From IMG/VR virus record IMGVR_UViG_3300044641_005825, positions 1 through 23,698 of that record: 23,698 nt of DNA, one strand, 5' to 3'. Below the pieces are notes generated by a model, which did no database searches, had not been told where the DNA came from, and saw nothing but the letters and a program-made list of their open reading frames with translations. Source of the stretch: a virus. Position 1 is the first letter of the stretch; every line of letters begins with the position of its first letter. A program made the translations under genes and the position numbers. Positions 4,953 through 21,274 of this stretch are shown one piece after another.

Positions 4953-5087
4953 TTGCTTCTCCTGTTATGTTGTTCGGGCCGGCGCACGGGTTGGGAGGTC
5001 TCACCCCGCCGATTTAGGACGCTAAGCGCGCGAGCCCGAACGTGTCCGATGGTAAGTGATTTGCTGACGGGGCGCAATGGGGACGGC

Positions 5088-5130
5088 AAATAGGCCGCCG
5101 CCTATTTCAAATATGCCGCCGCCTATTTCA
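5088..5130. repeat. 16-bp direct repeats with palindrome, operator-like
   Basis: GCCGCCGCCTATTTCA occurs exactly at 5094-5109 and again at 5115-5130, a start-to-start spacing of 21 bp, which is two DNA turns. The first copy also forms a palindrome with its left flank: AAATAGG (5088-5094) and CCTATTT (5101-5107) around a CCGCCG centre. Repeats on one face of the helix between divergent genes suggest a binding site for a dimeric regulator. The protein is not identified; the HTH gene at 5484 is one candidate. Confidence 0.5.
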
Positions 5131-6138: not shown

Positions 6139-6473
6139 TGGGAGCCCTCCCGCGCCAACCTGGCCTGTTCGTATCGAAGGGCGGCGAGGATGTCGGATCG
6201 CTCCGACCGCATCCGATCCGCCGCCGCCTGCAATTCCGACAGCGCGGGCCAGAACGTTCCCGAATAGGAGCGGATCGCAGCGAGCGCCACGTCCGCCGGA
6301 TAGGCTCGCATCCCGGCGACGTAGACCGCGTGTTGAAGGTCCGCGCCGTCATCGCTGATTGGCCGCGACGCCACGCGGTAACCCAACTCCACCAGAGCGG
6401 CTGACAGCATTTCGTCAGGCGCTGGCGTCACCACCTCGCACCACCACTCAGCGGCGGATCGCAGCGAGGTCAA
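6135..6473 (-). CDS. Possible replication accessory protein (helicase-loader-like shape)
   Basis: About 112 residues, following a DUF1376 replication protein. The recognisable part is YPADVALAAIRSYSGTFWPA followed by SELQAAADRMRSERSD and a charged helix. Small phage proteins with a Y-P-x-D ... FWP-x-SEL pattern often follow DUF1376-type genes and some load helicase, but I cannot show loader activity. The start is uncertain: TTG 6473 gives a 26-base overlap with the upstream gene and is used here. ATG 6551 and ATG 6581 would overlap by more than 100 bases, and GTG 6434 is also open. The stop overlaps the next gene by ATGA. Confidence 0.55.
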   Translation of the reverse strand: MTSLRSAAEWWCEVVTPAPDEMLSAALVELGYRVASRPISDDGADLQHAVYVAGMRAYPADVALAAIRSYSGTFWPALSELQAAADRMRSERSDILAALRYEQARLAREGSQ

Positions 6474-7287
6474 CGACGGTTCCGTTCCATCTGTCGTCAG
6501 GATCGTCAAAAGAGGCTGGCCGGGTCGGCGGATCGCCCTCGGGACGGCCATAACGCCGAAGCGCCGCTGCAAGGTGAGCATCGCCTGGTTGTCGACTTCC
6601 GCCGGACGGCGCTCGCTGAGCCACTGGACGGCGGCGCTTGAGCGTGTTGCGGCACCAGCTTCGCCACGTCGCGAGCCAATCGAGCTTACGACCGTCCGCG
6701 CCGGGCTTGGCTCGCCAGTAGTCGAGGAACTGAGCCGCTTCAAAGCGGGCCTCCTGTTCGCTGAGACCGAGCGCGACCGCCACGCTCAGGTCAGGTTGGA
6801 AATCATCCGGGATGCGAGAGCCGCGAGGCTCCCGTTTTTTCGGTTCCCCACTGGGGGGGACCAGACCACCCGAAGGGGGGGCTGGGGGGGTATCTAATTC
6901 TGACTCTAGTATTAGCATTGCGTCCGTATTGCGTTCGCATCGAACGCCGTCTGATTTTGCGTCGTTTTTCGACCACCTGTGAGACGCGCTGCTGCTTGCA
7001 GACTCGCGTTTCGCCTTCGCGGTTTCGATTGCCAGAGCGCAAAATTCGCAAGACAGAAAGCCGCGCGAGAGCGTCAGCTTGCCCAGCTCAACGAGGGTGA
7101 AAACGAGCTTCTCGCAAGCCGTGGTCGGGCAGTTGAGGCGCTTCGCCAGCCGGCCAGGATCGAACGCGACAGGCCCGCCATTTGTCAGGATCAGGGCGCG
7201 CACCTTCATGAGTGCGCCAGTCTCAGCCGGGGACAATTCGCCCGTGTCGTTCAGCCAATCGGCAAACTGCCATTTCACCCAATGCAT
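6448..7287 (-). CDS. DUF1376-family replication protein
   Basis: A 279-residue protein. The N-terminal 100 residues match the DUF1376 (YdaU-like) pattern: MHWVKWQFADWLNDTGELSP, then GALMKVRALILTNGG, DPGRLAKRLNC and a winged-helix-like stretch to LSCEFC. A low-complexity linker with two PPSG repeats follows. The C-terminal part (FDPDLSVAVALGLSE-like, then AQFLDYWRAKPGADGRKLDW and WRSWCRNTLKR) resembles the tail found in phage primosomal and replication-initiation proteins. It is probably the phage initiator or helicase-recruiting protein. ATG 7287 has AAGGGGG at good spacing, but that site is in a hairpin (see 7296-7313). The linker DNA holds three runs of seven C in the coding strand. Confidence 0.75.
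   Translation of the reverse strand: MHWVKWQFADWLNDTGELSPAETGALMKVRALILTNGGPVAFDPGRLAKRLNCPTTACEKLVFTLVELGKLTLSRGFLSCEFCALAIETAKAKRESASSSASHRWSKNDAKSDGVRCERNTDAMLILESELDTPPAPPSGGLVPPSGEPKKREPRGSRIPDDFQPDLSVAVALGLSEQEARFEAAQFLDYWRAKPGADGRKLDWLATWRSWCRNTLKRRRPVAQRAPSGGSRQPGDAHLAAALRRYGRPEGDPPTRPASFDDPDDRWNGTVVDLAAIRR
6853..6890 (+). repeat. Three seven-base G runs (possible G-quadruplex)
   Basis: Runs of seven G lie at 6853-6859, 6875-6881 and 6884-6890 on the plus strand, inside the linker of the DUF1376 gene, which is coded on the other strand. Together they hold enough G3 tracts for an intramolecular quadruplex on the template strand. They are also likely sites for polymerase slippage. Confidence 0.5.
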
Positions 7288-7370: not shown

Positions 7371-7403
7371 GGGGCCGGAGAAGCTCGCAACCTCTCCGGC
7401 CCC
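7371..7403 (-). terminator. Strong hairpin after the AlpA-like gene, terminator or attenuator
   Basis: GGGGCCGGAGA (7371-7381) and TCTCCGGCCCC (7393-7403) form a perfect 11-bp stem with an 11-base loop. On the minus strand it lies 37 bases after the stop at 7440 and is followed by TTAACC rather than a clear T run. It may end transcription in part, leaving the replication gene attenuated. Without a T tail it could instead be an RNA-stability element. A smaller CCCG/CGGG hairpin (7424-7439) lies between it and the stop. Confidence 0.4.
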
Positions 7404-7439: not shown

Positions 7440-7643
7440 TCACAAGATGTGGGTGCGCTCGCGTCGGCAGTCCTCCAACCAGCTGTCAATGTCAGCTCGG
7501 CGGTAACGAACGCACCGACCGATCTTCAGGAACTGCGGCCCGCCTCCGAAAATGCGCAGCTTGCGGGCGTACGACAGCTTGATGTTGACCAGATCGCAAA
7601 ATCCCTTCTCATCAAGCAGCTGCTCGGTTTTATCGTTGCTCAC
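7440..7643 (-). CDS. AlpA/excisionase-like helix-turn-helix protein
   Basis: A 67-residue protein with the layout of the HTH_17/AlpA group: LLDEKGFCDLVNIKLSYARKL forms the helix-turn-helix, then GPQFLKIGRCVRYRRADID and SWLEDC give the wing. Such proteins are prophage excision factors or transcription regulators. No integrase is seen in the window, so a regulatory role or an integrase beyond it are both open. It starts at GTG 7643 after AGGAG at good spacing. An 89-base gap separates it from the nuclease gene upstream and contains a small GCCGA/TCGGC palindrome (7661-7675), a possible autoregulatory site. Confidence 0.68.
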   Translation of the reverse strand: MSNDKTEQLLDEKGFCDLVNIKLSYARKLRIFGGGPQFLKIGRCVRYRRADIDSWLEDCRRERTHIL

Positions 7644-7732: not shown

Positions 7733-8095
7733 CTAAAATGGCCTTGCGCGCAATGGCACACCCCAATCGTTGAGGCATTCCCAGACCTGCTGGACAGACG
7801 TACAGACACGGCCCGAGAACCCGCACCGGGTAAGGTCAGCAATCACCGCCTGCTGATGGTCGGACAGCCTGCCGCCGGGCCGCTTCAGCTCTATCCAGAC
7901 CATGAGCCCAGCGTCCTCGCCCGGCCAGCATACAAGGAAGTCCGGGATGCCAGCCCGGACCCCCATGCGCTTTAGCTTCGCAGCCGTGGCCTTGTCGCGA
8001 ACCTCACCGTTCGGCGTGTGCCACCACAAGGCCGGAGGCTGGATAGCGAGGGCCAGGTATTCAGCAACCGAACGGTGAAGCTGGGCTTCCGTCAC
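7733..8095 (-). CDS. VRR-NUC domain nuclease
   Basis: A 120-residue protein consisting of one VRR-NUC (PD-(D/E)xK superfamily) domain. Visible motifs: HTPNGE (26-31), then RMGVRAGIPDFLV with catalytic D52, and WIELKRPGG with E69 and K71, followed by a conserved SDHQQ at 78-82. Phage VRR-NUC proteins are small structure-specific or resolvase-like nucleases. It starts at GTG 8095 in a GTGA overlap with the methyltransferase gene and lies downstream of helicase and methyltransferase, so the three are probably co-produced. The catalytic set looks complete. Confidence 0.85.
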   Translation of the reverse strand: MTEAQLHRSVAEYLALAIQPPALWWHTPNGEVRDKATAAKLKRMGVRAGIPDFLVCWPGEDAGLMVWIELKRPGGRLSDHQQAVIADLTRCGFSGRVCTSVQQVWECLNDWGVPLRARPF

Positions 8096-9072
8096 AACGT
8101 CTGCCCGACCGGAAACAATTCAGCGTTCTGGCTGTCCCAAGCCACTCCGCGCGCAGCTTCCTCAAGGTTGCGCCGGGCCTGCTCAAAATAGCTAGGCTTA
8201 AGTTCCGCGCCAATCCCGCGACGGCCCAGCAGCACAGGGATGTAGACCTCAGAACCCACACCCATAAACGGCGTAAGCACAGTCTCGCCGACATTCGACC
8301 GCATCACAACGATGCGTTCGATAACGTCAAGTTGAAGCGGGTGAACGTGCTTCTCGTCGTTCGGATCACGACTGAAGCGATACGGCAGTATGCGGCTAAA
8401 CCGAATGTCATCCCACATGCAGTCTGCGTAGCGTCGCCAAATCCAGTGCGAAAAGCGGTTCTCAGTCTGTTTCCCAGTCCAGCCGCGATACGGCAATATG
8501 TCAGCCGGCATCCGCTCTTCGCCCGCGTAATCCGTCAGGCCGACAGGATGCGCTACCGGGATAGGGTTTTTCCCGGCGCGACGGAAAATCAGCAGGTAAT
8601 CGGCGCCCGCGACGCCCGCATCAAGGCTGTCCTCGACAAATGCCTGATGCGCCAAATTCTTCTGCATCGTCCGCAACCGCACTTCGAGCGGCTCCTTCCA
8701 AATCATATGCCGGCCAGCAAATTGAAAGCCGTGACGCTGGTGCAGGCGGATAATGTCCCCCGGAAAGTCAATGTAGCTATCCGTACCGCTGTTGCTCCTC
8801 GGAACGTCCATGCAATGCACCGCCGTCATGCGTCCCGGCATGGTGACGCGCGAAATTTCCCGCACAACGATTTCGTAGTGCCGCAGGAACGACGGATAGT
8901 CGTCGTTGTTCGACAGGTCGCGGTCGTCGCTGCTGTATTGATACAGTCCGCCAAACGGCGGCGAGTAGATCGACAAGTGAATTGATCCGGCCGCAAGCTG
9001 CGACATAACTTCGATGCAATCGCCGTTGTAGATCGCATACTTGTCGGTCACGATTTGGTTCAGGACAGCCAT
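8092..9072 (-). CDS. DNA methyltransferase (N4/N6, beta-type motif order)
   Basis: A 326-residue protein of the N6_N4_Mtase (D12/beta) type. The catalytic motif IV is SPPF at 37-40, near the N-terminus. The SAM-binding motif I, ETVLTPFMGVGSE, comes near the C-terminus, followed by GIGAELKPSYFEQARRN. This order marks the beta class, which methylates adenine N6 or cytosine N4; the target cannot be read from sequence. The middle part (from MIWKEPLEVRLRTM to the RYADCMWDDIRF region) probably holds the target-recognition segment. It overlaps the upstream helicase by 13 bases. No cognate restriction endonuclease is seen, so it is likely an orphan enzyme that modifies phage DNA. Confidence 0.88.
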   Translation of the reverse strand: MAVLNQIVTDKYAIYNGDCIEVMSQLAAGSIHLSIYSPPFGGLYQYSSDDRDLSNNDDYPSFLRHYEIVVREISRVTMPGRMTAVHCMDVPRSNSGTDSYIDFPGDIIRLHQRHGFQFAGRHMIWKEPLEVRLRTMQKNLAHQAFVEDSLDAGVAGADYLLIFRRAGKNPIPVAHPVGLTDYAGEERMPADILPYRGWTGKQTENRFSHWIWRRYADCMWDDIRFSRILPYRFSRDPNDEKHVHPLQLDVIERIVVMRSNVGETVLTPFMGVGSEVYIPVLLGRRGIGAELKPSYFEQARRNLEEAARGVAWDSQNAELFPVGQTL

Positions 9073-10460
9073 TGAGGAAGCTCCATTGCGACGCCGTGGT
9101 CGCGCATGCGGTTGATGCGGATTGCGTTGTTCATATGCTCAACCATGGCCGCAAACATTTTGTCGGCCTGGGCCTGCTTGCGTTGCATGTTGGCAAGGAT
9201 GTCCGCCTCGCCTTCGGTCGTCACGATATCCACGTGCACGGGGCGCGCCTGCCCAAAACGATAACAACGGCGCACCGCTTGGTAGTATTGCTCGAACGAG
9301 TGAGACGGAAAAAACGTCATGTGGGCGCAATGCTGAAAATTGAGGCCCCACGCGCCAATTTTTGGTTTTGTCACCAAGACGCGAACCTTTCGGTCGGCAA
9401 AAGCCATTAGTTTTTCCTCCTTGGCGTCGTCCGCATCACGACCAGACACTTGAACGCAATCCGGTATCAATCGCTGCAAAAGGTCGCCCTCGTCGTTCCC
9501 GTGGCACCAAACAATTGCAGGTTGATCGTGCGCGACCAGTTCCGCCACTTTTTCGCACCGCTCGTTAATCGTGATGCGACGCTCTTCGCGCTGTTCATCC
9601 AGCCCGCACGCTGGAAGGCTAAAAAGCATTCCGTCGCGCGTCTGGCGAGCGTGAACCGTGTGTTGCGTCTCCGTAAGCGGCGGCAGGACAAACCGCCCGT
9701 CGTCAAATCCCAGATCCGACGGCTTGCGCACAGCCCGGCCCCAGCCGCACACCCATTGCCAAAACGGCACCTCGGCGTGACCTTTAAAACGCCACTTGAT
9801 GACCTGGGCACGCATCCGACCTTGCGCCGAGTTGTTAAGGTCGTTTTTGAAAAACCTATTGAGCATGTCCATATGGCCAAGGTATCCTAAAGCCTCAGAC
9901 GACGTGCCCAGCTCGACATAATCGTTTGGCGCGGCTGTTGCGCTGCACAAAAGCCGGTAGCGCATCTTCCGCATAAAGGCCGTCACTTCGCCGCGCCGAA
10001 CGCCGTTGAAATTCTTTAGGATCGAGCTTTCATCGCACACCATGCCGACAAAATCCGCCGGATCAAACGTGTGGAGGCGTTCATAGTTAGTGACCGTGAT
10101 GTCGCCGCTTGGCCGACCATCCGCACCGCGCCGAACGTCGATGCCAAACTTGTCGCCCTCGCGTTCGATTTGGCCAGACACCGCAAGCGCGGTCACGACC
10201 AGCACCTTTCCCTTAGCGTGGCGCGCAACACGATCCGCCCACGTTAACTGCATGGGCGTCTTTCCCAGCCCGCAATCCGCCATGATGGCAGCGCGGCCCT
10301 TGCGAACTGCCCAGTCCACCAGATGAGCCTGAAAGTCGAACAAAAACCCCGGCAACTCACCAGGGCCGAAGCCGTGATCTCCCTCCATCTGCGCTTTCAA
10401 GTCAAGAAAAGCGCCGTAACTTTCCGGAGACGATGGCAGTCCGTCCATTAAATGTCCCAC
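9060..10460 (-). CDS. SF2 (SNF2/DEAD-like) helicase
   Basis: A 466-residue superfamily 2 helicase. In order: FDFQAHLVDWA (41-51), Walker A ADCGLGKT (61-68), a DESS box at 143-146 in place of DEAD/DEAH, motif III SAT at 173-175, and in the second RecA domain TKPKIGAWGLNFQ (364-376) and motif VI QAVRRCYRFGQ (394-404). QAVRRCYRFGQ is the SNF2-like form seen in phage helicases. It should use ATP to translocate on or remodel DNA during replication or repair. GTG 10460 is chosen because AAGGAGG lies six bases upstream. It heads the helicase-methyltransferase-nuclease run. Confidence 0.88.
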   Translation of the reverse strand: MGHLMDGLPSSPESYGAFLDLKAQMEGDHGFGPGELPGFLFDFQAHLVDWAVRKGRAAIMADCGLGKTPMQLTWADRVARHAKGKVLVVTALAVSGQIEREGDKFGIDVRRGADGRPSGDITVTNYERLHTFDPADFVGMVCDESSILKNFNGVRRGEVTAFMRKMRYRLLCSATAAPNDYVELGTSSEALGYLGHMDMLNRFFKNDLNNSAQGRMRAQVIKWRFKGHAEVPFWQWVCGWGRAVRKPSDLGFDDGRFVLPPLTETQHTVHARQTRDGMLFSLPACGLDEQREERRITINERCEKVAELVAHDQPAIVWCHGNDEGDLLQRLIPDCVQVSGRDADDAKEEKLMAFADRKVRVLVTKPKIGAWGLNFQHCAHMTFFPSHSFEQYYQAVRRCYRFGQARPVHVDIVTTEGEADILANMQRKQAQADKMFAAMVEHMNNAIRINRMRDHGVAMELPQWLS

Positions 10461-10482: not shown

Positions 10483-10785
10483 TCACTTCCACACGCCCGC
10501 CGCCAGCGCCTTTTCACGCTGCTGGACGCCGTAGATCACCGTTGAGTGGTCCACACCGAACAGCCGGGCGATGGACGGATACGAAGGCGGCAAACCCGTC
10601 GCGGTCAACGTGCGCTCCCGCATCCGGCCCCATATCTCGAACCGGGCGCGGGTAAGCTCCTGATACCGGGCGCGAGACAGGACGCGAGCCCAGTCCACCC
10701 CCCGCTCTTGGCATACGTCCAGCACGATAGCACGCATAGCAGCGGGCATGGCTTTGAGGCGTTCGGCTTCAGTCATTGGCCGCAT
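10483..10785 (-). CDS. Stand-alone DnaA domain IV-like DNA-binding protein
   Basis: About 100 residues resembling only the C-terminal DNA-binding domain of DnaA. The signature is SYPSIARLFGVDHSTVIYGVQ near the C-terminus, equivalent to the DnaA IG-x-x-F-x-x-DHTTV helix-turn-helix. RARYQELTRARFEIWGRMRE precedes it, where DnaA has its basic-loop helix. There is no AAA+ ATPase domain. The protein could bind DnaA boxes, either to recruit replication proteins to the phage origin or to block host DnaA. Start choice: ATG 10785 overlaps the previous stop (TGATG) and is preferred; ATG 10803 and ATG 10776 are possible. Confidence 0.72.
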   Translation of the reverse strand: MRPMTEAERLKAMPAAMRAIVLDVCQERGVDWARVLSRARYQELTRARFEIWGRMRERTLTATGLPPSYPSIARLFGVDHSTVIYGVQQREKALAAGVWK

Positions 10786-10965: not shown

Positions 10966-11346
10966 TCAGTCATTGGCCACCCGATAGACAAAACGGTTCC
11001 CGTGCTTCGTGCGCCGGAGCGTCCCCGCATACCAAAGCTGCCGGACGGTCTCGTCAGCGTTGCGGTAGCTGAGAGCGATCCTGATTTCCGTCACGGGCAT
11101 GTCAGGGCGCTCGCGCAACAGCTCGATAATGCGTTCCCGATGCGTCGTGTTGCCCCGTGGCCGGCGGGCGTAGGGCGCTGGCTGGGTGCGTTCGGGCGTC
11201 ACTTCCTCCGCAGCCATTGCCGCCGCTTCCTCGGGCGTCACGAGCCGCAGGAAGGGCAGGTCAACGCGAGGGCGTTGGTGGAAGATGTGTGCGCCGCCTG
11301 TAGAGCCCGGCGGACGGCCTGCCCAGATCACGACGCCCGAGCCCAC
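10966..11346 (-). CDS. Unknown protein with winged-helix-like C-terminus
   Basis: A 126-residue protein. The C-terminal half reads as a winged helix: HRERIIELLRERPDMPVTEI, then SYRNADETVRQLWYAGTLRR, then a wing KHGNRFVYRV. The N-terminal half has a conserved-looking IFHQRPRVDLPFLRLV segment and an Ala/Glu-rich linker. A DNA-binding regulator or replication accessory factor is likely from the fold only. The GTG 11346 start overlaps the upstream gene by 19 bases and has no clear ribosome site, so translation probably depends on coupling. Confidence 0.6.
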   Translation of the reverse strand: MGSGVVIWAGRPPGSTGGAHIFHQRPRVDLPFLRLVTPEEAAAMAAEEVTPERTQPAPYARRPRGNTTHRERIIELLRERPDMPVTEIRIALSYRNADETVRQLWYAGTLRRTKHGNRFVYRVAND

Positions 11347-11600
11347 ACACCAATTACCGAAGCGGAAACACCAAAATGCTCCGCCGCTTCTCTATATGTC
11401 GTCCGCCACGCCATTTCCACGGCTGCGCGACGAACGGCAGGATCGATAGGATCAACGTACCTTGAAACCACGTTGTCCGACCGATACAGCACATTTGCCA
11501 CCACGTTACGCGTCACGCCCAGCGTGTCGGCAATTTCTGCATACTTGGCACCCTGCTTGCGCATGGCGATGATTTTCTGATTGCGTTCACGAATGTCCAT
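11328..11600 (-). CDS. Two-HTH regulator, GcrA/sigma-4-like, first gene of the replication operon
   Basis: A 90-residue protein with two helix-turn-helix units: NQKIIAMRKQGAKYAEIADT through LGVTRNVVANVLYR (about 7-41), and AAVEMAWRTTYREAAEHFGV through SASVIGVWAR (about 58-88). The first resembles the GcrA N-terminal HTH of alphaproteobacteria. It starts at ATG 11600 with a perfect AGGAGGT site and is transcribed away from the plus-strand recombination operon, the usual place for a regulator of both. It resembles the protein at 15096. Which promoter it controls cannot be read directly. Confidence 0.68.
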   Translation of the reverse strand: MDIRERNQKIIAMRKQGAKYAEIADTLGVTRNVVANVLYRSDNVVSRYVDPIDPAVRRAAVEMAWRTTYREAAEHFGVSASVIGVWARAS

Positions 11601-11619
11601 GGTTCACCTCCTGCGAAAA

Positions 11620-11661
11620 TGATTAGCCGCGCTTGACAGCAGATGCAAGCCGTTTTATCAA
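11620..11661. promoter_or_regulatory. Overlapping divergent promoters, control node 1
   Basis: Plus strand: TTGACA (11633-11638), 17 bases, TATCAA (11656-11661), for the operon starting at 11683. Minus strand: TTGCAT (11648-11643), 17 bases, TAATCA (11625-11620), for the operon starting at 11600. The plus -35 box lies inside the minus promoter, so the two polymerases compete. A 21-bp element at 11620-11640 recurs almost unchanged at 15939-15959. Confidence 0.65.
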
Positions 11662-11682
11662 CAGACCAGCAAGGAGGCACAC

Positions 11683-12606: not shown

Positions 12607-12845
12607 CCTGGGATGACGCCCAACGCTGGGCCACCATGGCCCCACACGGTCAGAAGCGCGCCAGAACCGCCAAGCTCCGCGCCGTGACGCACGCCACCCT
12701 GTCCGCAGAGGTGGCCCTCACCGACCTGCAAAAGGCCTGCGACGCCCTCGCCGCTCACGGCAACCGCGACCACTACAACGCCGCGCTTCGCATCCTGTCG
12801 GAGTTCGCGGCCAAGATCGAAAGGAAGGCTCTCGATGGACGCTGA
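12603..12845 (+). CDS. Small unknown helical protein
   Basis: An 80-residue protein, basic and helical (GQKRARTAKLRAVTHATLSA, then VALTDLQKACDALAAHGNRD). It starts at ATG 12603 in an ATGA overlap and ends 11 bases inside the Gp157 gene. No family is recognised. Its place directly before Gp157, Bet and SSB suggests a role in recombination or replication, by context only. Confidence 0.58.
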   Translation: MTWDDAQRWATMAPHGQKRARTAKLRAVTHATLSAEVALTDLQKACDALAAHGNRDHYNAALRILSEFAAKIERKALDGR

Positions 12846-13347
12846 GAAAGGCAGTCGCCTGTTTCGCGAAACGCAAGCCGTTGCAGCGTTGCGTGCGTCG
12901 CTGGGTGAGATGGCCAACGATGATCCGGAGCTTCTGGCCGACATGATCGAAGGCGAAACCAGCCTGTTTGAGTGCTTCGACCGGATGCTTGCCGCCAACG
13001 CACTGGACCAAGCGATGGCCGATGCTTGCGCCAAGGCAGCCGACGAAATCCATGCGCGCGGCAGCCGTTTCTACAAGCGCGCCATCGCCCGACGCACGCT
13101 CATTGAGCAGGCAATGATGATTGCCGAAGTCAACAAGGTTGAGCGACCACTGGCCACGCTGTCCATCACCAAGGGACGCGCCGCCGTCATCGTCACCGAA
13201 GAAAGCGACATCCCTGCCCGCTTTTGGAAGGCAGGCGCGCCGACACTCGACAAGAAGGCAATCGCAGACGCGCTCAAGGAAGGCGAGGCCGTTCCAGGGG
13301 CCACGCTGAACAACCCCATCCCCAGCCTTACAATCAGGACGAAGTGA
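12835..13347 (+). CDS. Gp157-family protein
   Basis: A 170-residue protein with the Siphovirus Gp157 (DUF) pattern: LLADMIEGETSLFECFDRML near the N-terminus, a central basic coiled-coil (RFYKRAIARRTLIEQAMM), and the signature C-terminus VERPLATLSITKG, SDIPARFW, then LKEGEAVPGATLNN and PSLTIRTK. The family is common next to Bet/RecT and SSB genes. Its biochemical role is not settled; resistance to phage has been reported for some members, but no reaction is known to me. ATG 12835 has AAAGGAAGG upstream and overlaps the previous gene by 11 bases. Confidence 0.85.
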   Translation: MDAEKGSRLFRETQAVAALRASLGEMANDDPELLADMIEGETSLFECFDRMLAANALDQAMADACAKAADEIHARGSRFYKRAIARRTLIEQAMMIAEVNKVERPLATLSITKGRAAVIVTEESDIPARFWKAGAPTLDKKAIADALKEGEAVPGATLNNPIPSLTIRTK

Positions 13348-13348
13348 C

Positions 13349-14251
13349 ATGACGAACGTTGCCACATTGCCGAGCGCGGCAGGCTTTACGCCCGCGCAAT
13401 TGTCGCTCATTCGCCGCACCGTCGCGGCTGACACGAACGCGGACGAATTCGACCTGTTCGTTGCAGCCGCTCGCCACGCCGGGCTGGACCCGTTCCGCCG
13501 CCAGATCAGCGCTATCGTGTTCAGCAAGGACAATCCGTCTAAGCGGAAAATGTCCATTATTGTCAACATTGACGGCTTCCGCGTCATTGCCGCGCGATCC
13601 GGCAACTATCGGCCCGATGACCGCGAGCCGGTCTATGTGTTCGACGCGGAACTGAAGTCGCCTGAAAACCCGAAAGGGCTAGTTTCGGCTAGCGTCCGCG
13701 TTTTCAAACGCGACCAGAGCGGCGAATGGTTCCCGTGCGTCGGCATCGCGCATTGGGATGAATTCGCGCCCATCAAAGACGAATGGGCCGACCGCCAGCG
13801 CACCGGGCGCAAGATCGTTGATGGCAATTGGGCGCGCATGCCGCTTGTCATGCTGGCCAAGTGCGCCGAAGCTCAGGCCCTGCGCCGCGCTTTCCCCGAT
13901 GCGTTCTCCGGCCTTTATGCCGAAGACGAAATGGACAAGCACATGGCGGAAACAACCGCCAGTGAAATGGTCGAAGCGCACGCCCGTGACATGCGGGTTG
14001 CGCGCATCGGCGGCAAGGCCATACTGCTGTCCATGTCGCCCGGCGCTCCGCTGGAAAGCGTCCCGCTTGGCCAAGTTGCAGACCGCATTGTCGAGGCCAT
14101 GTCCAACATGCGCGACCCGCGCCAAGTGGCGACGTTCCAAGCCAACAACGCAGAGCCGCTCAAGCAATTCTGGAGCGAGAGCCCCGGCGATGCGCTGGAA
14201 GTGAAACGACTGATTGAAGCCCGGAAGGCTGAACTGGAGGCCGCTCAATGA
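13349..14251 (+). CDS. bet: Bet/RecT-family single-strand annealing protein
   Basis: A 300-residue recombinase of the phage lambda Bet type. Diagnostic segments: an N-terminal LSLIRRTVAADTNADEFDLF, then ARHAGLDPFRRQISAIVFS, SIIVNIDGFRVIAARSGNY, then the highly conserved WARMPLVMLAKCAEAQALRR and AFPDAFSGLYAEDEM. The family anneals complementary single strands and normally works with a 5'-3' exonuclease. None is recognised in this operon, but SSB follows directly with an ATGA overlap. The C-terminal 80 residues are less conserved and probably bind partners. Start ATG 13349 lies just after the Gp157 stop. Confidence 0.92.
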   Translation: MTNVATLPSAAGFTPAQLSLIRRTVAADTNADEFDLFVAAARHAGLDPFRRQISAIVFSKDNPSKRKMSIIVNIDGFRVIAARSGNYRPDDREPVYVFDAELKSPENPKGLVSASVRVFKRDQSGEWFPCVGIAHWDEFAPIKDEWADRQRTGRKIVDGNWARMPLVMLAKCAEAQALRRAFPDAFSGLYAEDEMDKHMAETTASEMVEAHARDMRVARIGGKAILLSMSPGAPLESVPLGQVADRIVEAMSNMRDPRQVATFQANNAEPLKQFWSESPGDALEVKRLIEARKAELEAAQ

Positions 14252-14676
14252 ACAAGGTCATTCTCATCGGCAACGTGGGCAAGGACCCCGAAATCAAGTC
14301 CCTGCCGTCAGGAAACAAGATGGCCACGCTGTCACTCGCCACGTCCGAGCGCTGGACCGACAAGCACAGCGGCGAGAAGAAGGAACAGACTGAGTGGCAC
14401 AACGTCGTCGTGATGAACGAGGGCATCGCCGGCGTCGTCGAACGCTACGTTGCCAAGGGTTCCAAGATCGCCGTTGAGGGCAAGATCAAGACCCGCAAGT
14501 GGCAGGACAAAAACGGACAGGACCGCTACAGCACCGAGGTTGTGCTGGACATGCGGGGCCATCTGGAATTGCTCGGAGACGGCGGCGACCGCAAGCCCGC
14601 AGCCCAGCCCAGCCAGCGCGAGCAACGGCATGCGGCGCTGAGCGCCGATCCGTCGGACGACATCCCTTTTGATTGA
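14248..14676 (+). CDS. ssb: Single-stranded DNA-binding protein
   Basis: A 142-residue SSB. It begins with the hallmark NKVILIGNVGKDPEIKSLPSGN, then ATLSLATSERW and EQTEWHNVVV of the OB fold, and continues to KGSKIAVEGKIKTRKW. The linker is Gln/Pro-rich and the tail ends DDIPFD, the acidic tip that recruits partner proteins. It binds single-stranded DNA as a tetramer during phage replication and recombination. The ATGA overlap with bet fits co-expression of annealase and SSB. Nothing looks missing. Confidence 0.95.
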   Translation: MNKVILIGNVGKDPEIKSLPSGNKMATLSLATSERWTDKHSGEKKEQTEWHNVVVMNEGIAGVVERYVAKGSKIAVEGKIKTRKWQDKNGQDRYSTEVVLDMRGHLELLGDGGDRKPAAQPSQREQRHAALSADPSDDIPFD

Positions 14677-14715
14677 CCCTGACGCGCCAGGACAGCCATT
14701 AGGCGCGCGTCAGGG
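14677..14715 (+). promoter_or_regulatory. 11-bp hairpin between ssb and ninB
   Basis: CCCTGACGCGC (14677-14687) pairs perfectly with GCGCGTCAGGG (14705-14715) around a 17-base loop, starting right after the ssb stop. There is no T run, so it is more likely an mRNA stability or processing element than a full terminator. It fills nearly all of the only non-coding gap in this operon. Confidence 0.45.
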
Positions 14716-14727
14716 ACGGGAGCATCA

Positions 14728-15099
14728 ATGCCCCACCTTTACACCCTCCGAGACGAAGCTATCCGGGCGAGAGCGCTTGCAGCCGTGCGAGACGCTCCGC
14801 TCGGGTATGTGGTGAAGATCGAGCCGCCGAAACGGTCGGCTGAGCAAAACGCCAAGCTTTGGGCCATGCTTACGGAAATCAGTGAGGCTGAGCCGGGCGG
14901 CAGGCAGATTGACCCTGAAATATGGAAAGGCGCTTTCATGCTGGGTTTAGGCCACGAAGTTCGATTTGAACAAGGCCTAAACGGCGAGCCCTTCCCGGTT
15001 GGGTTTCGGTCCTCTCACCTGAGCAAGGCGCAGATGTCGGACCTGATCGAGTTTATCCAAGCGTGGTGCGCTGAAAACGGAGTGGAGCTGTCGCAATGA
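14728..15099 (+). CDS. ninB: NinB-family recombination protein
   Basis: A 123-residue protein matching the NinB (lambda Orf) family: LRDEAIRARALAAVRDAPLG, then VKIEPPKRSAEQNAKLWAML, KGAFMLGLGH, and the ending SSHLSKAQMSDLIEFIQAWC. Lambda Orf is a recombination mediator that works with SSB and can replace RecFOR functions. That fits the location after bet and ssb. ATG 14728 has GGGAG five bases upstream. The C-terminus overlaps the next start (ATGATG). Confidence 0.88.
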   Translation: MPHLYTLRDEAIRARALAAVRDAPLGYVVKIEPPKRSAEQNAKLWAMLTEISEAEPGGRQIDPEIWKGAFMLGLGHEVRFEQGLNGEPFPVGFRSSHLSKAQMSDLIEFIQAWCAENGVELSQ

Positions 15100-15431
15100 T
15101 GGGACGGAATCAAAAGATCGTGGCGATGTATCGTGAGGGCTACTCGGGTCACGAGGTTGCCCGGGCGTTCGGCTTGACGGGCCAACGCGTCTATCGAATT
15201 TTGGCAGATTGCGGAGAGCCTCGCCAGTGGCAACGGAAAGCCCCGCGCCGAAAGCAAGCGCCCCGTCCGCCTCGCAACGAAACCGAACGGGAAACTTGCG
15301 CCATGGTCGCGTTCGACAGCGGGATGACCTATTCGCAGATCGCCAAAGCGATGGGCATTACCCGCAATGCCGTTGCCGGCTTGATTGGCCGCGCTCGACG
15401 CGTTCGATGGGCCAAGGAAGATCACGCATGA
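15096..15431 (+). CDS. GcrA-like two-HTH regulator
   Basis: A 111-residue protein with two HTH units joined by a basic, Pro-rich linker. The N-terminal unit (RNQKIVAMYREGYSGHEVAR, AFGLTGQRVYRIL, 4-36) resembles that of the protein at 11328. The C-terminal unit (DSGMTYSQIAKAMGITRNAV, then AGLIGRARR) has the GcrA-type pattern. GcrA of alphaproteobacteria works with sigma70 on methylated promoters; phage homologues may redirect host transcription. ATG 15096 overlaps the NinB stop (a second ATG follows at 15099) and its own stop overlaps the HNH gene by ATGA. Confidence 0.68.
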   Translation: MMGRNQKIVAMYREGYSGHEVARAFGLTGQRVYRILADCGEPRQWQRKAPRRKQAPRPPRNETERETCAMVAFDSGMTYSQIAKAMGITRNAVAGLIGRARRVRWAKEDHA

Positions 15432-15757
15432 GACGCCGTTACAGCGCCAAGCAGCGAGCTGCAATCTTTGCCGAGCACGGCGGCGAGTGCCATATCTGTG
15501 GCGGCAAGATCGGCGTGGGCGAGGCTTGGGACCTGGACCACGTTATCCCCCTCGCGCTAGGCGGGGATGACGAACCGGCGAACCTACGCCCGGCGCATGT
15601 GAAGTGCCATCGAGGCGCAGGCGGCAAGACCGCCGAGGACGTGGCCACTATCGCCAAAGCCAAGCGGCGAGAGGCAAAGCACGCCGGAGCCGTGGTCAAG
15701 CGCCCTTGGCACCCGAGGCTCCGGAAGAAGCTCGACGGGACCGTGGTCCCTCGCTGA
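15428..15757 (+). CDS. HNH endonuclease
   Basis: A 109-residue HNH nuclease. It has CHIC (21-24) for zinc, then LDHVIPLALGGDD with D37-H38, N52 in the ANLRP segment and C60-H61 in HVKCH, all in the canonical order. The tail is basic. Many phages place an HNH nuclease next to the terminase to help packaging, but this one is in the recombination operon, far from terL, so resolution of recombination intermediates or DNA cutting are alternatives. ATG 15428 overlaps the previous stop. Its last 62 bases overlap the convergent repressor gene. Confidence 0.85.
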   Translation: MRRRYSAKQRAAIFAEHGGECHICGGKIGVGEAWDLDHVIPLALGGDDEPANLRPAHVKCHRGAGGKTAEDVATIAKAKRREAKHAGAVVKRPWHPRLRKKLDGTVVPR

Positions 15758-15932
15758 CCGGGTAGATGTCAGGCCGCAGGACGTGGCGGCTGACGCCTGT
15801 GATGCGCTCGACTTCAAGCACCCTGTCAACGGGAACTCGGGTCCACTGGTAGACCGCGCTACGGGTGACGCCCAGCTCGCGCGCAATGCGGATGCGAACG
15901 CCGGGGCCGAAAATATCACTCAACAGCTTCAT
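15696..15932 (-). CDS. Cro/YdaS-like repressor
   Basis: A 78-residue protein. Residues 1-58 match the YdaS/Cro group: an HTH at about 12-32 (RIRIARELGVTRSAVYQW), then VPVDRVLEVERITGVSRH and the hallmark VLRPDIYP. A basic Ser/Ala-rich tail follows. It is divergent from the accessory operon at 16002, as Cro- or CI-like repressors commonly are. ATG 15932 has no ribosome site; the proposed -10 box (15944-15939) would place the start of transcription on the ATG itself, so the mRNA is probably leaderless, as lambda cI is from its maintenance promoter. It overlaps the end of the HNH gene by 62 bases. Confidence 0.8.
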   Translation of the reverse strand: MKLLSDIFGPGVRIRIARELGVTRSAVYQWTRVPVDRVLEVERITGVSRHVLRPDIYPVSEGPRSRRASSGASGAKGA

Positions 15933-15938
15933 GATTTC

Positions 15939-15979
15939 TGATTAGCACGCCTTGACAGCGCCGGGCAATGGGGTAGTGT
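15939..15979. promoter_or_regulatory. Overlapping divergent promoters, control node 2
   Basis: Plus strand: TTGACA (15952-15957), 16 bases, TAGTGT (15974-15979), for the genes from 16002. Minus strand: TTGCCC (15968-15963), 18 bases, TAATCA (15944-15939), for the repressor at 15932. Positions 15939-15959 repeat the element at 11620-11640, with the same opposed promoter layout. Confidence 0.6.
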
Positions 15980-16319: not shown

Positions 16320-16396
16320 CCCTCCCCACCCTGACCCGCAACCTTATCGCCATCGCCGCCATCGTTGCCGGCGTGTGGCTGGTGTTCTGGAGGTGA
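16316..16396 (+). CDS. 26-residue single-span membrane peptide
   Basis: A very short gene, ATG 16316 to TGA 16396. After MTLPTLTRN the peptide is LIAIAAIVAGVWLVFWR, one clear membrane span with an Arg end. The start overlaps the DUF6197 stop by ATGA, and the next gene begins three bases after its stop, with its GGAGG ribosome site inside this ORF. Such tiny phage membrane peptides can affect host membrane proteins or exclude other phages, but no role is shown here. Confidence 0.5.
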   Translation: MTLPTLTRNLIAIAAIVAGVWLVFWR

Positions 16397-16398
16397 CA

Positions 16399-16965
16399 AT
16401 GACCGACCCCACCGAGCCGCTGCTGGCGGCACACTTCGCATGGATGCGCGGCGGACCGGACGGCTCAAGGCTGATTTGGGCTTACCTGACGCCAGAGGAA
16501 CGTGGGGCGTTCCGCAGGGCCAACCTGACGGGGGCCAACCTGTCGGGGGTCGACCTGTCGTGGGCCAACCTGACGGGGACCAACCTGACGGGGGTCGACC
16601 TGACGGGGGCCGACCTGACGGGGGCCGACCTGTCGGGGGCCAACCTGACGGGGACCAACCTGACGGGGGTCGACCTGACGGGGGCCGACCTGACGGGGGC
16701 CGACCTGTCGGGGGCCAACCTGACGGGGACCAAGATTGGCGACCACACTGTCAACCGGCGCGTCGCGCAGCTCCAGTGCTCGCGCGGATACGGATGGATC
16801 GGGTTCGACACCGACAACGGCCTGTTGATCTGCGCCGGTTGTCGCACGCTGCTGATCGCGGACGCCAAGAAGTATTGGGGTCGCAGCTACACCGGGCGCG
16901 GCAACCGGGCCGAAATCGCCAATATCCTCCGCTACATCACCGCTCAACACAAGGTGCTGAAATGA
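16399..16965 (+). CDS. Pentapeptide-repeat protein
   Basis: A 188-residue protein. About 14 pentapeptides of the form A-(D/N)-L-(T/S)-G span residues 41-112 and should fold as a right-handed quadrilateral beta-helix. The C-terminal domain (HTVNRRVAQLQCSRGYGWIG, then LLICAGCRTLL, AKKYWGRSY) is not repetitive. Some pentapeptide proteins mimic DNA and inhibit gyrase; this protein is short for that and its role is open. ATG 16399 has GGAGG upstream. The DNA holds a 75-bp tandem duplication, listed separately. It overlaps the next gene by ATGA. Confidence 0.85.
   Translation: MTDPTEPLLAAHFAWMRGGPDGSRLIWAYLTPEERGAFRRANLTGANLSGVDLSWANLTGTNLTGVDLTGADLTGADLSGANLTGTNLTGVDLTGADLTGADLSGANLTGTKIGDHTVNRRVAQLQCSRGYGWIGFDTDNGLLICAGCRTLLIADAKKYWGRSYTGRGNRAEIANILRYITAQHKVLK
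16562..16734 (+). repeat. 75-bp tandem duplication within the pentapeptide gene
   Basis: Positions 16562-16636 are repeated exactly at 16637-16711, and a third partial copy runs to about 16734. Each unit codes for five pentapeptides. Identity at the DNA level shows a recent duplication rather than only protein-level conservation. Confidence 0.8.
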
Positions 16966-21155: not shown

Positions 21156-21274
21156 GACCAGCCCTCGACATCGCTCGCAAGGTTATCCAGCACCGACGCC
21201 AAGGCCAGCAGGCCCAGCCCCGGCAAAGCGCACAGGCCAGCCGCCACCCTCAGCACCCACACCGCGACAATCAC
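21152..21274 (-). CDS. 40-residue membrane peptide between endolysin and spanin
   Basis: GTG 21274 to TGA 21152 codes for MIVAVWVLRVAAGLCALPGL followed by GLLALASVLDNLASDVEGWS: one hydrophobic stretch of about 28 residues and a short acidic tail. It overlaps the endolysin stop by GTGA and the Rz start by ATGA, so translation is well supported. Position in the lysis cassette suggests a small holin or holin regulator, but one span is few for a holin. The two-TM protein at 23350 is the other holin candidate. Confidence 0.55.
   Translation of the reverse strand: MIVAVWVLRVAAGLCALPGLGLLALASVLDNLASDVEGWS

What the first reader, a model, noticed from the sequence alone, without database searches (positions are those of the whole stretch)
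10483..10785. Stand-alone DnaA domain IV
A protein of about 100 residues carries only the DnaA DNA-binding signature (SYPSIARLFGVDHSTVIYGV) and no ATPase domain, in a replication operon. It could mark the phage origin for the replication proteins or compete with host DnaA. I could not find a canonical DnaA box cluster beside it; the closest partial match noticed was TTATCCAG near 21182.
Basis: partly seen in the sequence, partly recalled or inferred. Interest (0 to 1): 0.5.

Follow-up and report, generated by a model that had tools for sequence, protein, structure and literature searches.

The report
Phage protein with only DnaA's DNA-reader
A phage carries, among its replication genes, a tiny protein that is just the DNA-reading end of the bacterial replication starter DnaA; such stripped-down copies are known, and this one may well switch phage early genes rather than start replication by itself.

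Summary
A 100-aa protein on the minus strand (10785→10483) is a solitary DnaA domain IV: Bac_DnaA_C just above its cut-off and an AlphaFold model (pLDDT 94.9) overlaying the M. tuberculosis and E. coli DnaA DNA-binding domains at Z 12.4 and 12.3, 1.5 Å over 80 residues. It keeps R399, D433 and H434 (T435 is Ser), has no ATPase, and lies in a helicase-methylase-nuclease-primosome operon. The proposed roles are not shown: no canonical DnaA box and no cluster in the window. The kind is known: GafY/HdaB (stand-alone) and GafA (fused) activate gene transfer agents; phage copies are annotated. It is not a GafY: no GafZ partner, H434 kept, outside the GafY clade. New here: in ctNMl277-like phages, whose protein may be a sister group, presumed early TTGACA promoters carry DnaA boxes at a fixed place. 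The window's early promoter has one imperfect box (11655-11663), not significant alone, and shares a different, box-free element with a second divergent promoter. I favour early-transcription control; origin marking, DnaA competition and changed specificity stay open.

The parts
10483..10785 (-). Stand-alone DnaA domain IV protein (100 aa). Loop 36-41 holds R40 (= E. coli R399); helices 69-76 and 80-96 form the helix-turn-helix (D79, H80, S81, T82 = D433, H434, T435, T436); loop 59-68 is 6 residues longer than in E. coli
10785..11030 (-). Small Cys-rich ORF upstream in the same operon (81 aa), weak phrog_15838 of unknown function
10966..11346 (-). 126-aa protein with weak winged/homeodomain-like HTH matches
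11328..11600 (-). 90-aa HTH protein (HTH_23, Sigma70_r4_2), first gene of the leftward early operon
9060..10460 (-). Helicase (phrog_62 DNA helicase, Helicase_C), next gene downstream
8092..9072 (-). N6/N4 DNA methyltransferase
7733..8095 (-). VRR-NUC nuclease
7440..7643 (-). Small HTH_17-like protein (25.4 bits, below the cut-off of 27)
6448..7287 (-). Primosomal / replication initiation protein (phrog_3992 E 1.3e-27, phrog_1408; DUF1376 below its cut-off), the more likely true initiator
11601..11682 (.). Divergent gap between the leftward operon and the rightward recombination operon; TTGACA at 11633-11638, 17-nt spacer, TATCAA at 11656-11661
   Evidence: sequence; promoter read by eye, not found by the scan
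11655..11663 (+). Imperfect DnaA box TTATCAACA overlapping the proposed -10; candidate operator, not significant on its own
   Evidence: (shuffle P 0.07)
11620..11640 (+). TGATTAGC-N5-TTGACAGC, repeated at 15939-15959 in a second divergent gap; shared promoter/operator element without a DnaA box; reader unknown
12835..15099 (+). Rightward operon genes: Gp157 (12835-13347), RecT (13349-14251), SSB (14248-14676), NinB (14728-15099)

Best explanation
Shown: the protein is a single DnaA domain IV with the main DnaA-type box-reading residues and no ATPase. Inferred: it is made early with the replication genes and binds DnaA-box-like sites on the phage genome. Without the other DnaA domains it cannot melt DNA or load a helicase in DnaA's way; bound at early promoter(s) it activates or represses the early/replication operons, as GafY and GafA do for gene transfer agents. 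The primosomal protein at 6448-7287 would be the real initiator. The candidate site in this window is TTATCAACA over the -10 of the rightward early promoter.
For: Fold and residues. The characterised domain IV proteins GafY and GafA are transcription activators; GafY is proposed to act through sigma-70 with IHF (passages). In ctNMl277-like phages (domain IV protein of 98-135 aa wherever the gene is on the contig), presumed early promoters read TTGACA-N4-[box][inverted box]: 19 of 19 promoters picked by upstream context, not by box, in 8 contigs; 24 instances and 9 half pairs in 11 contigs (pairs limited to 3 mismatches). Left halves drift around TTWTNCACA, 8 of 9 within one mismatch. A subgroup has TTGACA-N12-exact box in 7 of 8 loci. 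DNA-only scans of 2.9 million viral contigs: the first form hits 10 contigs, 8 with the gene and 2 fragments ending before or inside its place; the second hits 12, all with it (the twelfth). Controls: 1 promoter-plus-box in 76 loci, 669 kb. The tree places the window protein in a phage group beside that family, fork 82/78, not firm. L092, the best sequence match, fuses a GcrA-like domain (18.9 bits, below cut-off) to domain IV. Window: one TTGACA-plus-near-box, in a divergent early gap.
Against: The window site has one mismatch, the opposite orientation to the ctNMl277-type right-hand box, and is not significant (shuffle P 0.07); the promoter is read by eye and missed by the scan. The same gap shares a 16-of-16-base element with the divergent gap at 15933-15977: it holds no DnaA box and the second gap lacks TTATCAACA, so another regulator may run these promoters. 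The ctNMl277-like contigs are kin, not independent, and host DnaA could be what binds their boxes. In one search two of four TTGAC sites of the second subgroup have no box. The other lineages tested (among them C72C1, HTVC100P, EBPR podovirus 2, L002, L012-L014, L016, L092) show no such promoter; HTVC010P (32% GC) has two hits, both inside annotated genes, and Xanthomonas phage PBR31, where I did not look for the domain, has one. Long branches make the tree placement unsure. No close relative of the early region was found for footprinting.
Confidence: 0.4

Rival explanations
1. Origin marker: the protein binds box-like sites at the phage origin and helps the primosomal protein or host DnaA assemble there.
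For: Replication-gene neighbours in separate lineages: helicase, methylase, nuclease and primosomal gene here; next to DnaB in L016; between a RusA-like resolvase and a replication-initiation protein in EBPR podovirus 2; near a weak DnaN-like match in L092 (18.3 bits, below cut-off). phrog_27829 is named 'DnaA-like replication initiation protein'; two pelagiphage copies are annotated 'DNA replication initiation'.
Against: No box cluster in the window. Of five phages read over 34.6-40.6 kb only ctNMl277 has a nominal excess; HTVC100P has a deficit (1 against 6.22).
Confidence: 0.28
2. Host-directed decoy: it occupies DnaA boxes at the host origin or DnaA-controlled promoters and slows host initiation.
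For: Box-reading residues kept although the phage fragment holds no canonical box. A protein without domains I-III would bind but not initiate. Overexpressed GafY (then HdaB) raised the copy number of some loci and inhibited division, as told in PMC9632790.
Against: No direct evidence; zero boxes in a GC-rich 23.7-kb fragment is expected (0.42). The GafY authors ascribe those effects to gene transfer agent production.
Confidence: 0.17
3. The fold is kept but the specificity has changed: a phage HTH regulator that no longer reads DnaA boxes and may, for example, read the shared TGATTAGC-N5-TTGACAGC element.
For: S400 is Tyr, R401 Gln, L422 Tyr, R432 Val, R442 and K443 Gln, and there is a 6-residue insertion. 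GafY has likewise changed H434 to R in 6 of 7. The shared element lies at two divergent gaps, 11620-11640 and 15939-15959.
Against: R399, R405, R407, D433, H434 and T435 (as Ser) equivalents are kept. The shared element may belong to the YdaS/Cro-like repressor beside it.
Confidence: 0.15

Closest known systems
GafY (CCNA_01111, earlier HdaB) of Caulobacter crescentus and homologs
   Same: Stand-alone DnaA domain IV protein tied to a phage-like element; known from passages of PMC9632790 and PMC11150451
   Different: The seven GafY-like proteins found here sit next to a GafZ-like gene and six carry Arg for H434 (one Pro); the window has no GafZ-like gene and its protein lies outside the GafY clade
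GafA of Rhodobacter capsulatus GTA
   Same: DnaA-like DNA-binding domain used for transcription activation (PMC9638019 passages)
   Different: GafA is a 42-kDa fusion with a sigma-like C-terminus; here the domain is alone
Pelagiphage Bac_DnaA_C proteins (HTVC010P, HTVC100P, Greip, HTVC024P) and ctNMl277 'dnaa protein helix-turn-helix'
   Same: Phage domain IV proteins without an ATPase, in the early region
   Different: 23.5-30.6% (pelagiphages) and 33.3% (ctNMl277) identical in the tblastn matches; those aligned lack the 6-residue insertion
L092 protein (IMGVR_UViG_3300023171_000025)
   Same: Best sequence match (41% over residues 13-93), insertion of the same length, upstream of a helicase and a VRR-NUC gene
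   Different: Has a weak GcrA-like N-terminal HTH
DnaA domain IV of E. coli (1J1V)
   Same: Fold, Z 12.3, 1.5 Å over 80 residues; main reading residues
   Different: No domains I-III; Tyr for S400, Val for R432, Gln for R442/K443; longer loop

Membership tests
Bac_DnaA_C / DnaA domain IV (PF08299) | Profile score over curated cut-off | tested here: met
   32.8 vs 31.5 bits
Bac_DnaA_C / DnaA domain IV (PF08299) | Domain IV fold with basic loop and helix-turn-helix | tested here: met
   six DnaA entries at Z 9.8-12.4, first non-DnaA row 6.0
Bac_DnaA_C / DnaA domain IV (PF08299) | Reading residues R399, D433, H434, T/S435 | tested here: met
   R40, D79, H80, S81; S400, R432, R442, K443 are not kept
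Bac_DnaA_C / DnaA domain IV (PF08299) | Binding to DnaA boxes | not testable with these tools
   needs a binding assay
Full DnaA initiator | AAA+ ATPase domain III and domain I | tested here: not met
   100-106 aa frame, only Bac_DnaA_C over cut-off
GafY/HdaB | Adjacent GafZ gene | tested here: not met
   no phmmer hit to the L152 GafZ-like protein in the window at E 1e-3, against 6 of 9 genome loci
GafY/HdaB | Falls in the GafY clade | tested here: not met
   7 GafY rows form one clade, 100/83, without the window protein; short alignment, long branches
phrog_27829 DnaA-like replication initiation protein | Match to that profile | tested here: inconclusive
   window protein lists only phrog_3502 at E 0.22; two distant relatives match phrog_27829 at E 0.0021 and 0.032
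DnaA-box origin (oriC-like) | Cluster of DnaA boxes in the same replicon | tested here: inconclusive
   0 exact boxes, near-boxes not above chance, but the window is a fragment

The most novel reading that the evidence does not exclude
Several phage groups use a bare DnaA domain IV as an early-gene regulator that reads the host's own DnaA-box code at phage promoters, so that phage early transcription either senses or displaces host DnaA. The ctNMl277-like promoters are the clearest case and the window's 11655-11663 site would be a diverged one.
Probability: 0.28. Interest if true: 0.65.

Novelty: new member of a known kind. Interest (0 to 1): 0.42.

Why it matters
It shows how the DNA-reading end of the bacterial initiator has been detached and reused by phages. 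The conserved DnaA boxes in presumed early promoters of ctNMl277-like phages turn an unassigned gene type into a testable regulator, and bear on why gene transfer agents use DnaA-like activators.

Tried and rejected
Canonical box cluster in the window: absent. Reading TTATCCAG at 21182 as a box: rejected. Head-to-head box pairs in the window with two mismatches or fewer: none. GafY membership: not met. I first thought that a subgroup of ctNMl277-like phages with Asn at R399 had lost its boxes; one search showed an exact box at a fixed place in 7 of 8 loci of that subgroup (all but L122, which has Arg there), so the idea was dropped. H1 (MT837889) is a full-length DnaA in an unverified 6-kb record, dropped as probably bacterial. 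Host chromosomes: 1 of 385 genomes of the class of G081 matched the window protein at E 1e-5, in a 511-aa frame. The one genome-contig scan gave 14 loci: 13 frames of 421-517 aa and one of 178 aa. Plasmids: no match. S-H1, with the most similar helicase in the phage collection (62.7%), shows no domain IV frame in the 11.4 kb fetched. The conservation of D-H-S-T in the phage rows is partly circular, because many loci were found with that motif; among ten rows found otherwise H434 is kept in 9 (by eye). In one search the class of frames of 400 aa or more (46 rows) includes two viral ORFs, L114 and L115, not shown to be DnaA. Five viral contigs hold TGATTAGC-N5-TTGACAGC; not followed, and about chance by my rough estimate.

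Full report
What is there. On the minus strand, 10785→10483, lies a 100-aa frame whose start overlaps the stop of the gene before it. Pfam gives Bac_DnaA_C, 32.8 bits against 31.5. The record is a 23.7-kb linear virus fragment. AlphaFold on a 22-row alignment gives a confident model (mean pLDDT 94.9). Foldseek's best hits are DnaA chains, but with weak E-values, 0.03 at best. The VIA second look gives Z 12.4 and 12.3 to the M. tuberculosis and E. coli DnaA DNA-binding domains, 1.5 Å over 80 residues, four more DnaA entries at 9.8-11.5, then a drop to 6.0 for ParB. A profile of the same alignment finds six PDB sequences at E 0.001 or better, all DnaA.

Reading residues. Against E. coli DnaA, R399, R405, R407, S421, P423, D433, H434 and T436 have identical equivalents, T435 is Ser, K397 is Arg. 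S400 and L422 are Tyr, R401 is Gln, R432 is Val, R442 and K443 are Gln. Contacts of R399, S400, T435, R442 and K443 are as quoted in PMC9638019 (passages); those of D433 and H434 are recalled. So the main base readers are kept but S400 and the backbone contacts at 442-443 are not. Ser at 435 also occurs in 14 of 46 long frames. A six-residue insertion before the helix-turn-helix is shared with L092; L093 has five residues there; the other 19 rows of A3 have none.

Neighbourhood. The leftward operon runs HTH (11600) - weak winged HTH - small Cys-rich ORF - domain IV - helicase - methyltransferase - VRR-NUC - small HTH - primosomal protein. The rightward one carries Gp157, RecT, SSB, NinB and an HTH protein with a GcrA-like match below cut-off. 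Of 80 viral loci with the closest helicases, 4 records hold a Bac_DnaA_C match: L012-L014, the three most similar, and L016, where the domain IV gene precedes a DnaB gene. Many of those records are short fragments. In the tree the L012 and L013 proteins group with E. coli DnaA and one short genome frame (99/95), so the same slot seems to have been filled by a separate capture.

Boxes. No exact TTWTNCACA is in the window (0.42 expected); near-boxes are at chance. Over five phages read for 34.6-40.6 kb (ctNMl277, C72C1, HTVC010P, HTVC100P, EBPR podovirus 2), counts were 6 (2.16 expected), 3 (2.58), 8 (7.35), 1 (6.22) and 1 (0.35); only the first is nominally significant (P 0.023). Relatives of ctNMl277 stand out more: L109 8 against 0.86, L102 5 against 0.79, L097 5 against 1.06, L096 3 against 0.40; L113, L105 and L122, of a subgroup, do not.

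Promoters of the ctNMl277-like group. Many of the extra boxes lie in repeated, presumed early promoters: TTGACA, four bases, then two head-to-head boxes of which the second overlaps the -10. Picked by the sequence before TTGACA and not by the box, 19 of 19 such sites in 8 contigs have this form, one of ctNMl277's with a decayed right half. Over 11 contigs there are 24 instances and nine half pairs, taken with at most three mismatches; eight left halves are within one mismatch of TTWTNCACA, and the right half is exact in eight of nine pairs. One member, L198, has TTATCAACA as a left half, the same word as the window's near-box. A subgroup has one exact box twelve bases after TTGACA in 7 of 8 loci; its free position reads A, G or T, though the pattern of that scan let only that position vary. 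DNA-only scans of the viral contigs returned 10 and 12 contigs: 8 and 12 carry a domain IV gene; the other two, L196 and L197, are 4.2 and 4.7 kb and by alignment to ctNMl277 end before or inside its place (for L326 the gene is in L113). These contigs are kin, so this is linkage within one phage group, not independent repetition, and host DnaA could be the binder. Controls: 1 promoter-plus-box in 76 loci, 669 kb. The same scan hit HTVC010P twice, inside genes, and Xanthomonas phage PBR31 once.

Back to the window. That scan finds one place: TTGACA at 11633, 16 bases, TTATCAACA at 11655-11663, in the divergent gap between the two early operons. By the control rate about 0.04 would be expected; by shuffling the gap, P is 0.07. 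The orientation differs from the ctNMl277 right-hand box. I count it as a candidate only. On checking I saw that this gap shares TGATTAGC-N5-TTGACAGC, 16 of 16 fixed bases, with the divergent gap beside the YdaS/Cro-like gene (11620-11640 and 15939-15959); no other window site comes within three mismatches. It holds no DnaA box. It may be the repressor's operator, or the site of any of the HTH proteins, domain IV included. No relative close enough for footprinting was found.

Known relatives. From passages read: GafA has a DnaA-like N-terminal domain held to be needed for activating the RcGTA promoters, and small DnaA-like genes precede gafA in most Hyphomicrobiales cases (PMC9638019; also PMC6363796). 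GafY is homologous to DnaA domain IV and works as an activator with IHF, by a proposed contact to sigma-70 (PMC9632790 and PMC11150451). HdaB is known here only from a reference title and mentions in PMC9632790. In 58 genomes of the class of the Aquamicrobium genome G081, itself included, I found ten frames of 110-279 aa with the domain in eight genomes; seven of the ten lie next to a GafZ-like gene (L152, the source of the query, and L185-L190). Those seven have H434 replaced (6 Arg, 1 Pro), against 46 of 46 long frames and 34 of 35 phage rows that keep His. The window protein keeps His and has no GafZ. In the tree it joins L002 and L092 (99/88) and then, less firmly, the ctNMl277-like family (82/78); long branches are flagged.

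Verdict. Domain identity is firm. The mechanism is not. Precedent from GafY/GafA, the boxes in presumed early promoters of a possibly sister phage group and the lack of a box array favour early transcription control; the neighbours favour a replication role; decoy action is untested; the shared box-free element keeps changed specificity open. Ten keyword searches of an open-licence library (listings) showed no paper on a phage stand-alone domain IV protein acting at DnaA-box promoters; only asked for promoters.

Noticed in passing
window 11620-11640 and 15939-15959: TGATTAGC-N5-TTGACAGC repeated at two divergent gaps: the -35 of a rightward promoter joined to a possible leftward -10; likely a shared operator.
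   Followed up: partly
window 5087-5128: Two tandem 21-bp palindromes (CAAATAGGCCGCCGCCTATTT, second copy 95% alike) in a divergent gap before the terminase genes; operator- or terminator-like.
   Followed up: no
window 16375-16965: Pentapeptide-repeat protein (PF00805, E 2.6e-31); such proteins can mimic DNA (recalled).
   Followed up: no
window 15096-15431: HTH protein with a GcrA-like match (25.7 bits, cut-off 26.9) in the rightward operon.
   Followed up: no
window 15696-15932: YdaS/Cro-like protein on the minus strand, suggesting a temperate control region.
   Followed up: no
window 7371-7403: GC-rich hairpin, read by eye, in the gap before the primosomal gene; one near-box (ATATTCACA, 7407) lies just beside it.
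   Followed up: no
L092 7824-8258: Best sequence match fuses a weak GcrA-like domain (18.9 bits, below cut-off) to DnaA domain IV; a weak DNA_pol3_beta_2 match lies upstream.
   Followed up: partly
L002 4109-6591: An AAA ATPase gene lies about 1 kb upstream of the domain IV gene in MW202476, perhaps a split initiator or helicase loader.
   Followed up: partly
L148 (HTVC100P): Pelagiphage with a domain IV gene has fewer DnaA boxes than expected (1 against 6.22).
   Followed up: no
L008 101-1447: Full-length DnaA in a record named 'Bacteriophage sp.' (MT837889), probably a bacterial fragment.
   Followed up: no
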